64,000 bases of DNA from Xanthomonas maliensis (lineage in GTDB: Bacteria; Pseudomonadota; Gammaproteobacteria; Xanthomonadales; Xanthomonadaceae): positions 124,001-188,000 of the forward strand of contig NZ_NSET01000019.1 of the NCBI RefSeq assembly GCF_009192945.1, given 5' to 3'. The position numbers were made by a program, and so were the translations under genes. Shown piece by piece: positions 23,993 to 32,433 of the stretch; the first letter of the stretch is position 1, and every line of letters starts with the position of its first letter. The notes under the pieces were generated by a model. That model saw nothing but the letters and a program-made list of their open reading frames with translations. It did no database searches and was not told the origin of the DNA.

Positions 23993-24018
23993 TAAATATT
24001 CCTGCCGCGCGCCGATAC
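23993..24018 (+). promoter_or_regulatory. Sigma-28 (FliA) type promoter of the chemosensory operon
   Basis: TAAATATT (23993-24000), a 10-bp spacer and GCCGATAC (24011-24018) closely match the flagellar sigma-28 consensus TAAAGTTT-N11-GCCGATAA. Transcription would start near 24025, about 95 nt before the STAS gene. This ties the operon to the flagellar regulon, pending promoter mapping. Confidence 0.75.
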
Positions 24019-24119
24019 CTGCATAGACCGATCGGCTCGTGTGCGCTGTGGCGCCTGCGGCACCGACCGCTCTCCTCCCGCGTCATGGCACCCAGCGCAC
24101 CACCGCCCCCGAGGCACCG

Positions 24120-24449
24120 ATGAACATCCTATTGCCCGACCTGCCCGCCCCACTGACGCTCGCCCTCGAAGGCGAGATGACCATCCGTCGCGCGGCCGAA
24201 CTCAAGCCCCTGCTGGAGCCGGCACTGGCGCATCCGGGTGGCGTGCGGCTGGACCTGGCGGCGGTTAGCGAGATCGACACCACTGGCCTACAGCTGCTGT
24301 TGGCGACCAAGCAGGCCATCCAGGCCGATGGACGGCCGTTCTCGCTCACCGATTCCAGCCGCGCCGTGGTGGACGTGATGGAACTGCTCGGCCTGCTGGA
24401 GACGCTGTATCCGCACGCAGCCACCGGGCTGGACGAACGCCTGCACTGA
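24120..24449 (+). CDS. STAS-domain protein, first gene of the chemosensory operon
   Basis: The 109-residue single-domain protein resembles SpoIIAA-type anti-sigma-factor antagonists (LALEGEMTIRRAAELKPLL, VRLDLAAVSEIDTTGLQLLL). The conserved phosphorylatable Ser position in the DxSGL-type loop reads DTTGLQLL, with Thr there, so phosphorylation remains possible. STAS proteins bind partner kinases or receptors; here it precedes cheA by 14 bp. Its role in signalling is unknown. I chose the ATG at 24120 for the family-like N-terminus. Confidence 0.85.
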   Translation: MNILLPDLPAPLTLALEGEMTIRRAAELKPLLEPALAHPGGVRLDLAAVSEIDTTGLQLLLATKQAIQADGRPFSLTDSSRAVVDVMELLGLLETLYPHAATGLDERLH

Positions 24450-24463
24450 GGGACGGCGCCGCA

Positions 24464-30500: not shown

Positions 30501-30502
30501 GC

Positions 30503-31309
30503 ATGAGCAGCGCCACCGCCATCACCGAACAGGAATTCGGACGCTTCCAGCGTTTCATCTTCGAAGCCGCCGGCATCAGCATCTCCAGCGGCAAGAAGGC
30601 CATGTTGTGCGGCCGGTTGGGCAAGCGTCTCAAGGAACATCGCTTCGAGAGCTATACGCAGTACCTGCAGCTGCTCGAAAGCCGCCAGGACAAGGTCGAG
30701 ATCCAGACCGCGATCGACTTGCTCACCACCAACGAAACGTACTTCTTCCGCGAGCCCAAGCATTTCGACCTGCTGCGCCGCCTGGCCGGCGAGCACCGTG
30801 GCCCGGCGCCCCTGCGTTGCTGGAGCGCGGCCAGCTCCAGCGGTGAGGAGGCATACAGCATGGCGATGGTGCTGGACGATTGCCTGCAGGGCCGCGCCTT
30901 CGAGGTGGTGGGCACCGACATCAGCACGCGCGTGCTGGCCAAGGCGCGGACCGGCCACTACGCGCTGCAGCGCATCGACGGTATTCCGCCGGCCTACCTC
31001 AAGCGCTATTGCCTGCGCGGCCAGGGTGAGTACCAGGGCACCTTGCTGATCGAACGGCGTCTGCGCGAGCGCGTGCAGTTCGTGCACGCCAACCTCAACG
31101 CCGCGCTGCCGATGTTGGGCAGCTTCGAGCTGATCTTCCTGCGCAATGTGATGATTTATTTCAACGGCCAGACCAAGCGTGAAGTGATCCAGCGGGTGCT
31201 GAACCACCTCAAGCCGGGCGGCCACTTCTGCATCGGCCATTCGGAGAGCCTGAGCGAACTCGACGTCGACCTGGTCCAGGTGGCACCCTCGATCTACCGC
31301 AAGGCCTGA
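30503..31309 (+). CDS. cheR: Chemoreceptor methyltransferase CheR
   Basis: The 268-residue SAM-dependent enzyme methylates glutamates of chemoreceptors. The N-terminal helical domain (LLTTNETYFFREPKHFDLL) is followed by the methyltransferase core WSAASSSGEEAYSMAMVL, VVGTDISTRVLAKA, LIFLRNVMIYF and LKPGGHFCIGHSESL. It starts 2 bp after the stop of the receiver-EAL gene and is followed 14 bp later by cheB. Confidence 0.95.
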   Translation: MSSATAITEQEFGRFQRFIFEAAGISISSGKKAMLCGRLGKRLKEHRFESYTQYLQLLESRQDKVEIQTAIDLLTTNETYFFREPKHFDLLRRLAGEHRGPAPLRCWSAASSSGEEAYSMAMVLDDCLQGRAFEVVGTDISTRVLAKARTGHYALQRIDGIPPAYLKRYCLRGQGEYQGTLLIERRLRERVQFVHANLNAALPMLGSFELIFLRNVMIYFNGQTKREVIQRVLNHLKPGGHFCIGHSESLSELDVDLVQVAPSIYRKA

Positions 31310-31323
31310 GCCGAGGAGTGCCC

Positions 31324-32433
31324 ATGTCCACCGCGCTGCCCCGTTCCGCTGCAAACCCCAACACCATCAAGGCGATGGTGGTCGACGACTCGGCGGTCGT
31401 GCGCCAAGTGTTGGTCGGCGTACTCAACGAAGCACAGGGCATCGAGGTGATCGCCACCGCTGCCGACCCATTGCTGGCGATGGACAAGATGCGCCAACAG
31501 TGGCCCGACGTGATCGTGCTGGACGTGGAAATGCCACGCATGGATGGCATCACCTTCCTGCGCAAGATCATGAGCGAGCGGCCGACGCCGGTGGTGATCT
31601 GCTCCACCCTCACCGAGAAAGGCGCCCGCGTCACCATGGACGCGCTGGCCGCCGGCGCGGTAGCGGTGGTCACCAAGCCACGCCTGGGCCTGAAACAATT
31701 CCTGACCGAATCGGCCGACGAACTGGTCGCCACTGTGCGCAGCGCCGCCCGCGCCAACGTCAAGCGGCTGGCGGCGCGCGCCACTGCCACGCCGCTGGAA
31801 GCCGACGTCAAGCACAACGCCGACGTGATCCTGCCGGCGCAAAGCGGCCGCGCACTGGCGCAGACCACCGAGCGTGTCGTCGCCATCGGCACCTCCACCG
31901 GCGGCACCCAGGCGTTGGAAGAAGTCCTGACTGCGCTGCCGCGCGTCTGTCCCGGGATCGTAATCGTGCAGCACATGCCGGAAAAATTTACCGCCGCCTT
32001 CGCCGCACGGCTGGACGGCCTGTGCCAGATCGCGGTGAAGGAAGCAGCGAACAACGATCGCGTGATGCCGGGACGTGCGCTGATTGCGCCTGGCGGCAAG
32101 CATCTGCTGCTACGCCGCAGCGGCGCGCAGTACTTCGTCGAAGTGCTCGAAGGCCCGCCAGTCAATCGTCACCGGCCGTCGGTAGACGTCTTGTTCCGCT
32201 CGGCCGCACGTGCAGCCGGCAGCAATGCGCTGGGCATCATCATGACCGGCATGGGCGATGACGGTGCCGCCGGGCTGCTGGAGATGCGCCAGGCCGGTGC
32301 CCGCACGGTGGCGCAGGACGAGCAGACCAGCATCGTATTCGGCATGCCCAAGGAAGCCATCAAACGCGGCGGTGCCGATCGCATCCTGCCGCTCGGCGCG
32401 ATGGCGCGCGAGATCGTCACCCAGCTGCAATAA
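31324..32433 (+). CDS. cheB: Chemotaxis methylesterase/deamidase CheB
   Basis: The 369-residue protein has a receiver domain with phospho-Asp67 in VIVLDVEMPRMDG. The C-terminal esterase shows the Ser-His-Asp triad: Ser in AIGTSTGGTQAL, His in IVIVQHMPEKF and Asp in MTGMGDDGAAGL. It removes receptor methyl groups and provides adaptation feedback from CheA. I chose the ATG at 31324, with GAGGAG 5 bp upstream, over the GTG 6 bp earlier. It is the last gene of the chemosensory operon and converges on a phospholipase D family gene. Confidence 0.95.
   Translation: MSTALPRSAANPNTIKAMVVDDSAVVRQVLVGVLNEAQGIEVIATAADPLLAMDKMRQQWPDVIVLDVEMPRMDGITFLRKIMSERPTPVVICSTLTEKGARVTMDALAAGAVAVVTKPRLGLKQFLTESADELVATVRSAARANVKRLAARATATPLEADVKHNADVILPAQSGRALAQTTERVVAIGTSTGGTQALEEVLTALPRVCPGIVIVQHMPEKFTAAFAARLDGLCQIAVKEAANNDRVMPGRALIAPGGKHLLLRRSGAQYFVEVLEGPPVNRHRPSVDVLFRSAARAAGSNALGIIMTGMGDDGAAGLLEMRQAGARTVAQDEQTSIVFGMPKEAIKRGGADRILPLGAMAREIVTQLQ

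What the first reader, a model, noticed from the sequence alone, without database searches (positions are those of the whole stretch)
23993..32433. Flagellar sigma-28 promoter drives a chemosensory operon with no CheY but a receiver-EAL output
TAAATATT-N10-GCCGATAC upstream of the STAS-cheA-mcp-cheW-REC/EAL-cheR-cheB cluster is close to the FliA consensus. The only stand-alone receiver in the cluster is fused to an apparently intact EAL domain, so CheA probably controls c-di-GMP breakdown instead of the motor directly. The layout mirrors Wsp systems but with the opposite enzyme (phosphodiesterase, not cyclase).
Basis: partly seen in the sequence, partly recalled or inferred. Interest (0 to 1): 0.8.

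Follow-up and report, generated by a model that had tools for sequence, protein, structure and literature searches.

The report
Chemosensory operon with phosphodiesterase output
A plant-associated Xanthomonas carries a chemotaxis-type sensing operon that lacks the usual motor-control protein CheY and instead encodes an intact receiver-linked enzyme predicted to destroy the signal molecule cyclic di-GMP; the arrangement is shared with many related bacteria and has a conserved flagellar-type promoter motif, but the link between sensor and enzyme is untested.

Summary
The operon STAS-cheA-mcp-cheW-REC/EAL-cheR-cheB (24120-32433, +) is real and lacks CheY. Its REC-EAL protein has all expected phosphorylation and catalytic residues and is closest to RocR among solved structures. 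It is not a Wsp copy: the receptor is one heptad per arm shorter than E. coli Tsr (34H), the mark of flagellar class F8, whereas Wsp is ACF. All 80 REC-EAL relatives kept (of 431 found) lie in che clusters. Fourteen of the 48 outside Xanthomonadaceae also show a CheY, so Xanthomonas probably lost it.

The promoter element is strongly constrained in Xanthomonadaceae: one N10 copy upstream of cheA in each of 32 of 35 genus genomes, reversed-pattern control zero. It was not seen in 8 non-family loci. It is FliA-like, but its spacer is one base shorter than in five own sites upstream of flagellar/chemotaxis genes.

The claim that CheA acts on c-di-GMP "instead of" the motor is weaker. A published Xanthomonas CheA, whose map position fits this locus, phosphorylates the stand-alone receiver VemR; phospho-VemR binds FliM. 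Best reading: branched output, REC-EAL phosphodiesterase plus a receiver in trans. New variant of a known kind.

The parts
23993..24018 (+). Conserved FliA-like promoter element TAAATATT-N10-GCCGATAC
   Evidence: present upstream of the STAS gene in 29 of 29 aligned Xanthomonadaceae sequences (window + 28 loci; L022 and L025 have TCAATATT, L037 TAAGTATT) and in L118 (TAAACATT); spacer variable. Not seen upstream of STAS in 8 of 8 other loci
24120..24449 (+). STAS domain protein (anti-sigma-antagonist type)
   Evidence: STAS_2 7.5e-17, STAS 5.7e-12
24464..26455 (+). CheA kinase (663 aa) with Hpt, dimerisation, ATPase and CheW domains
   Evidence: kinase motifs present; 50-55% identical to CheA of four beta/gammaproteobacterial REC-EAL clusters but 38% to the paralogue on C98
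26515..28668 (+). Chemoreceptor with three HAMP_N3 repeats, 34H signalling domain, C-terminal QFASF
28678..29193 (+). CheW
   Evidence: 7.3e-37
29217..30500 (+). REC-EAL response regulator, predicted c-di-GMP phosphodiesterase; D66 phosphosite, E192 of EAL
30497..31309 (+). CheR methyltransferase, no TPR match
   Evidence: CheR 1.1e-51
31318..32433 (+). CheB (REC + methylesterase)

Best explanation
This is an F8-class chemosensory operon. A membrane-anchored poly-HAMP 34H receptor, CheW and CheA form a signalling unit whose activity is adapted by CheR and CheB. Active CheA-P transfers phosphate to CheB and to D66 of the co-encoded REC-EAL protein; by analogy with RocR this raises its c-di-GMP phosphodiesterase activity and favours motile life. 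CheY has been lost from the cluster in Xanthomonas, so any direct motor output runs in trans through a stand-alone receiver such as VemR. Expression is probably coupled to the flagellar programme through a FliA-like promoter with a spacer one base short. Shown here: gene order, intact residues, receptor class, conservation of cluster and promoter. Inferred: phosphotransfer, activation, FliA use, membrane anchoring, loss of CheY (rather than gain elsewhere), physiological effect.
For: REC-EAL sits in che clusters in 80 of 80 kept loci, in different gene orders (after cheW, after cheR or after cheB), so the link survives rearrangement. D66 in 80 of 81 sequences; D21, S94, K121, E192, N250, E282, E285, D311, D312, K332, E368, Q388 in 81 of 81 (roles assigned from recalled REC and EAL motifs). 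RocR is the best solved relative by sequence (1.1e-55) and by fold (1.3e-28; model pLDDT 84.7). [quoted passage not shown] Receptor arms 65/75 residues in the window and in 32 of 32 Xanthomonadaceae loci, against 72/82 in Tsr; F8 uses 34H (PMC7184735, PMC11253619, passages). CheA kinase motifs intact. CheY-size receiver absent in the window and in 32 of 32 Xanthomonadaceae loci (four of them, L031, L036, L038, L039, cut before STAS), present in 14 of the other 48. Promoter element.
Against: No phosphotransfer or enzyme data. The c-di-GMP branch may be secondary: a Xanthomonas CheA at the matching map position phosphorylates VemR (PMC9218911). In the 14 CheY-containing relatives REC-EAL is presumably not the only output. 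Spacer N10 differs from N11 in all five own sites upstream of flagellar/chemotaxis genes, and the element was not seen in 8 of 8 loci outside Xanthomonadaceae. FliA is present in 35 of 35 genus genomes, including two without this CheA (G124, and G133 which is 81% complete), so co-loss could not be tested. Seed patterns of the locus search contained MLIDLEMP and IDDYGTGF, so the conservation of D66, D311 and D312 is partly selected. The receptor landmarks could be read on both arms in only 10 of the 48 other loci.
Confidence: 0.55

Rival explanations
1. CheA's main output is a stand-alone receiver in trans (VemR or one of the two CheYs of the flagellar contig). The REC-EAL protein is a minor branch that trims local c-di-GMP or competes for phosphate.
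For: PMC9218911 (abstract and passages): X. oryzae pv. oryzicola CheA (ACU12_07015, 665 aa) phosphorylates VemR (ACU12_10515), and no phosphorylated VemR is seen in the cheA mutant. flgA is ACU12_10415; if tags run in steps of 5 (vemR and its neighbour are 10515 and 10520), that cheA lies about 700 genes from the flagellar cluster. In the nine genus genomes with all three genes on one contig the F7-type CheA lies 13-61 kb from fliA and the F8-type CheA 647-4462 kb away along the contig, so by elimination the studied CheA is probably this one. Phosphorylated VemR binds FliM (PMC7036368, passages). The own genome has a 127-aa receiver in the VemR position between rpoN and fleQ and further stand-alone receivers.
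Against: Identity of the studied CheA is inferred from locus tags, not from sequence; in G124, which lacks the F8-type CheA, the F7-type CheA is 210 kb from fliA, so the spacing is not fixed. VemR also takes phosphate from other kinases (HpaS; RavA as cited in PMC9218911). It does not explain why REC-EAL stays in che clusters across beta/gammaproteobacteria with its catalytic residues.
Confidence: 0.3
2. The REC-EAL protein is a constitutive phosphodiesterase held at the receptor array by its receiver, like Pch/DipA of P. aeruginosa, which needs CheA for position and activity but has no receiver of its own.
For: [quoted passage not shown]
Against: D66, K121 and S94 are kept, which argues for phosphorylation rather than docking alone.
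Confidence: 0.1
3. The promoter is not read by FliA but by another factor; resemblance to FliA sites is partial.
For: Spacer one base short, and TAAAT instead of TAAAG, compared with the own sites at flgM, fliC, STAS-cheY-cheA and two mcp genes. The TATT after TAAA is almost invariant here but not in the own FliA-type sites.
Against: Both half sites match FliA elements and both are the conserved parts (1.90 and 1.93 bits against 0.99 in the spacer, sites found by a pattern that fixes most of these bases; the alignment shows the same without it). No sigma-70-like site was found in 23300-32700.
Confidence: 0.3

Closest known systems
F8 chemosensory system of Pseudomonas syringae pv. tomato (cluster II, cheA1)
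   Same: Single 34H receptor encoded in the cluster, CheA-type kinase (PMC11253619, abstract and passages)
   Different: The P. syringae F8 system is described with a CheY response regulator; 'EAL' does not occur in the main text. P. syringae F8 sequences could not be fetched for comparison
Wsp system (ACF class, WspR)
   Same: CheA-type kinase with a c-di-GMP enzyme that carries a receiver
   Different: WspR is REC-GGDEF (synthesis), and CheR-TPR is tied to ACF pathways such as Wsp (PMC3447774, passages); here REC-EAL (breakdown), CheR without TPR, 34H receptor
RocR / PvrR response regulators of P. aeruginosa
   Same: REC-EAL architecture and domain folds; best PDB match 3sy8
   Different: RocR is served by RocS1 (PMC4933438, passage), not by a CheA; the score against the PvrR model is 284.9 with cut-off 580; whole-chain TM to RocR is only about 0.55, so the domain arrangement of the model is not the same
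Pch/DipA with CheA in P. aeruginosa
   Same: Chemotaxis kinase needed for a c-di-GMP phosphodiesterase
   Different: Pch lacks a receiver domain (PMC3861689, passages)
VieAxoo (PXO_04753) of X. oryzae pv. oryzae
   Same: By elimination in PMC6637768 (section 4) it is EdpX2, the only EAL-only protein there that has a REC domain; probably the orthologue of the window protein
   Different: The review lists biofilm and hypersensitive-response phenotypes; CheA has 0 occurrences in its main text; the primary paper was not seen

Membership tests
F8 chemosensory class | 34H receptor (one heptad per arm shorter than 36H) | tested here: met
   arms 65/75 against 72/82 in Tsr
F8 chemosensory class | Position in a CheA-CheB-CheR tree with reference F8 members | not tested
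   no named F8 reference sequences were fetched; only pairwise CheA identities
F8 chemosensory class | Receptor with two transmembrane regions | not tested
   two hydrophobic stretches seen by eye in residues 11-60; no predictor run
Wsp (ACF) | Response regulator is REC-GGDEF | tested here: not met
   REC + EAL, no GGDEF match
Wsp (ACF) | CheR fused to TPR | tested here: not met
   CheR_N, CheR and general methyltransferase matches, no TPR; 270 aa
Wsp (ACF) | Two CheW-like proteins (recalled) | tested here: not met
   one cheW in the cluster
RocR/PvrR-type REC-EAL | REC + EAL with intact phosphosite and catalytic residues | tested here: met
RocR/PvrR-type REC-EAL | Score over the NCBIfam PvrR cut-off | tested here: not met
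   284.9 bits, cut-off 580
FliA-dependent promoter | TAAA half site and GCCG(A/T)TA half site | tested here: met
FliA-dependent promoter | 15 bases between TAAA and GCCG as in the organism's own flagellar/chemotaxis sites | tested here: not met
   14 here; 15 in 5 of 5 own pattern matches that have a flagellar or chemotaxis gene directly downstream
FliA-dependent promoter | Loss of the transcript without fliA | not testable with these tools
   needs an experiment

The most novel reading that the evidence does not exclude
A flagellar-class (F8) chemosensory array with a dedicated phosphodiesterase output, widespread in beta/gammaproteobacteria. In Xanthomonas it has dropped CheY and is switched on by FliA, so that receptor signalling lowers c-di-GMP only in cells that have completed a flagellum: the functional mirror image of Wsp, evolved from a different class.
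Probability: 0.4. Interest if true: 0.7.

Novelty: new variant of a known kind. Interest (0 to 1): 0.5.

Why it matters
A 2022 review (PMC8846402, passage) states that chemosensory systems known to modulate c-di-GMP fall into only two of 19 classes, ACF and TFP. An F8 array whose resident response regulator is an intact phosphodiesterase would add a third class and give receptor-controlled c-di-GMP breakdown rather than synthesis. It would also give a concrete target for the little-studied F8 systems, and offers a test of whether c-di-GMP is lowered at the array or in the whole cell.

Tried and rejected
Wsp/ACF membership: rejected on receptor class, CheR without TPR and the enzyme type. F7 class: considered because of the poly-HAMP receptor and the best NCBIfam match to Aer2; rejected because one heptad is missing from each arm, and because the more E. 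coli-like CheA is the other one on C98 (45% to E. coli CheA, against 39% for the window CheA). Co-loss with flagella: tried and uninformative, since FliA is in 35 of 35 genus genomes. The weaker family-wide REC-EAL hits (40-46% identity, 32 of the 41 genomes with a match) occur also in FliA-less genomes; I take them for a different paralogue, and their neighbourhoods were not looked at. CheY census limits: only + strand ORFs of 90-165 aa within the held flanks; several loci outside the family are cut before the upstream genes. Own FliA-type pattern counts are not above their reversed-pattern control as such (GCCGTTA form: 4 matches against 10 in the control; GCCGATA form: 5 against 2); what speaks for them is that all four GCCGTTA matches lie in the flagellar contig C98, three of them directly before flagellar/chemotaxis genes. 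VieAxoo identity: by elimination only. The ten literature searches (two were aimed at FliA and VemR) showed me no paper that links a REC-EAL to an F8 CheA; I saw listings and passages, and the library holds open-licence papers only. PMC7698356 (passages) concerns a CheY-family orphan regulator, not this protein. PMC5088630, PMC3826837, PMC10782961 and PMC8552884 (passages) gave nothing on a REC-EAL in such a cluster. Fold search added nothing beyond RocR.
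Full report
What is there. The window lies in a Xanthomonas-like genome (the best named relatives of the REC-EAL protein are Xanthomonas at 83-85%; contig C53 of a 5.2-Mb assembly). Downstream of mfd lies a seven-gene run on the + strand: STAS, cheA, mcp, cheW, REC-EAL, cheR, cheB, with gaps of -4 to 59 bp. The next large ORF (32526-34148) runs the other way. The element TAAATATT-N10-GCCGATAC is at 23993-24018.

The REC-EAL protein. It matches REC (5.4e-18) and EAL (1.2e-71). In the alignment of the window protein with all 80 loci kept by the search (80 of 431 confirmed relatives), the receiver residues D21, S94 and K121 are present in 81 of 81, D66 in 80 of 81, D20 as D in 74 and E in 7; nine EAL signature positions (E192, N250, E282, E285, D311, D312, K332, E368, Q388; roles recalled) are kept in 81 of 81. 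Two of the six search patterns cover D66 and D311/D312, so for those three residues the count is biased; 27 of the 80 loci are close Xanthomonas. A model from 26 of the 81 sequences has pLDDT 84.7 with both domains well formed. RocR is the best solved relative by sequence and by fold; whole-chain TM is about 0.55, so the arrangement of the two domains in the model differs from the crystal. The score against the NCBIfam PvrR model is well below its cut-off, so I call it RocR/PvrR-like and not PvrR.

The system's class. The receptor has three HAMP_N3 repeats. Its signalling hairpin lacks seven residues on each arm relative to E. coli Tsr. The measured arms are 65 and 75 residues, against 72 and 82 in Tsr. 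A recount over the 80 loci: 65/75 in 32 of 32 Xanthomonadaceae loci and 10 of the 48 others; one of the two values in 11 more; landmarks not readable in 21; no receptor in the held stretch in 6. Receptors in L076, L079 and L081 give another N-arm landmark that I cannot interpret. 34H is assigned to F8 systems in PMC7184735 and PMC11253619 (passages). The CheA is 50-55% identical to CheA of the four beta/gammaproteobacterial REC-EAL clusters compared (L044, L050, L075, L087) and 73-87% to two Xanthomonadaceae ones (L037, L009), but 38% to the second STAS-cheY-cheA paralogue on C98; that paralogue is 45% identical to E. coli CheA. The genome has four CheA-type kinases: this one, two on the flagellar contig C98 and one in a 2351-aa frame on C76. 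The receptor ends in QFASF, which fits the pentapeptide pattern x-[HFYW]-x-x-[HFYW] quoted in PMC7184735.

Conservation of the arrangement. All 80 loci carry at least one of cheA, cheW, cheR, cheB (order). Twenty-six of the 27 close Xanthomonas loci (L009-L035) show the full order STAS-cheA-mcp-cheW-REC/EAL-cheR-cheB; the other (L031) is cut by a contig end. Five further Xanthomonadaceae loci (L036-L040) carry two or three receptor copies. Outside the family the gene sits in several places, mostly after cheW or after cheB. A CheY-size receiver is found in none of the 32 Xanthomonadaceae loci (four of them cut before STAS) and in 14 of the other 48, many of which are cut short. So the REC-EAL did not simply replace CheY: the two coexist in relatives, and Xanthomonas appears to have lost CheY (inference).

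The promoter element. Alignment of the window with the 28 Xanthomonadaceae loci that have a STAS hit shows both half sites kept while the spacer varies, even in L037 and L040 where the rest of the upstream region hardly aligns; L022 and L025 have TCAATATT, L037 TAAGTATT. In 8 of 8 loci outside the family with a STAS hit the pattern was not found. With L118 added (30 sequences), information content is 1.90 and 1.93 bits per base in the half sites against 0.99 in the spacer and 1.31/1.15 in the flanks (the sites were located by a pattern that fixes most half-site bases). In 35 genomes of the genus the N10 form occurs once in each of 32 genomes, always 443-490 bp from the F8 cheA start, same contig and strand; nine of the 32 carry one further match with a spacer of 9 or 11; the reversed-pattern control has none in 35. 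Of the three without a match, G125 has the element with one change, and G124 and G133 (81% complete) lack the CheA orthologue too. The organism's own FliA-type sites lie upstream of genes confirmed by Pfam as flgM, flagellin, STAS-cheY(-cheA) and two receptors; all five have 15 bases between TAAA and GCCG, against 14 here. The pattern counts themselves do not exceed their reversed control (4 against 10; 5 against 2), and the genes behind three further matches (C98:182497, C101, C129) were not identified. I therefore call the element FliA-like and strongly constrained; FliA use is likely but not shown. The E. coli FliA consensus is recalled.

Flagellar link. FliA is in 35 of 35 genus genomes. 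In a family sample of 110, REC-EAL matches of 60% or more occur in 9 genomes of two genera and all 9 have FliA; 32 other genomes have only 40-46% matches. This is consistent with a flagellar tie but is no test, as no FliA-less member of these genera was met.

What CheA talks to. Published work complicates this. In X. oryzae pv. oryzicola a CheA of 665 aa encoded by ACU12_07015 phosphorylates the stand-alone receiver VemR in vitro, and in vivo no phosphorylated VemR is seen without cheA (PMC9218911, abstract and passages). If tags run in steps of 5, that gene lies about 700 genes from flgA and vemR. In the nine genus genomes with all three genes on one contig, the F7-type CheA is 13-61 kb from fliA and the F8-type CheA 647 kb or more away (genomes with the genes on different contigs were left out, and in G124, without the F8 type, the F7-type CheA is 210 kb from fliA). 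So the studied CheA is probably the orthologue of the window's. A 127-aa receiver lies in the VemR position of the own genome, between rpoN and fleQ (name from that neighbourhood), and phosphorylated VemR binds FliM (PMC7036368, passages). Likewise VieAxoo of X. oryzae pv. oryzae is by elimination the REC-EAL protein EdpX2 (PMC6637768, section 4); the review lists it as a phosphodiesterase that promotes biofilm formation. Both links rest on locus tags and elimination, not on sequence.

Mechanism. Most likely a branched pathway: receptor - CheW - CheA, feeding CheB, REC-EAL and probably a receiver in trans. RocR, the nearest characterised relative, is activated by phosphorylation (PMC4933438, passage), so active CheA should lower c-di-GMP. 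P. aeruginosa gives a precedent for a CheA-dependent phosphodiesterase, Pch, which itself has no receiver (PMC3861689, passages).

Novelty. REC-EAL regulators in chemosensory clusters were noted among CheR-TPR/ACF clusters (one with EAL, two with GGDEF and EAL; PMC3447774, passages). A 2022 review states that c-di-GMP-modulating chemosensory systems fall into ACF or TFP (PMC8846402, passage). In ten searches of the open library (listed under Tried and rejected; listings and passages seen) I met no paper that ties a REC-EAL to an F8 system. This is a new variant of a known kind, of moderate interest.

Noticed in passing
23405-23545: A roughly 140-bp dispersed repeat with terminal inverted repeats (MITE-like) begins at the mfd stop codon; one search lists 42 matches in the own genome, 28 of them with E of 7e-29 or better, at least eight within 320 bp of a contig start. 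The mfd-STAS gap here is 711 bp, longer than in the relatives where mfd is reached.
   Followed up: partly
L093/L100 (G000:C98:165350-168132): A second STAS-cheY-cheA cluster with a canonical FliA-type site (TAAAG..N15-GCCGTTA) on the flagellar contig; the six receptors of that contig that were aligned have signalling domains as long as Tsr (36H).
   Followed up: partly
L036-L040: Five Xanthomonadaceae loci (four Xanthomonas outside the main group, one Pseudoxanthomonas) carry two or three receptor genes in the F8 cluster instead of one, pointing to receptor duplication.
   Followed up: no
G124 (genome search handle): A genome of the genus rated 100% complete, with FliA but without the F8 CheA orthologue and without the promoter element: probably a natural loss.
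   Followed up: no
12914-18076 (-): CreD-like inner membrane protein (12914-14359) and a HAMP-HisKA-HATPase kinase (15837-17546), with a response regulator match at 17747-18076: a CreBCD-type locus.
   Followed up: no
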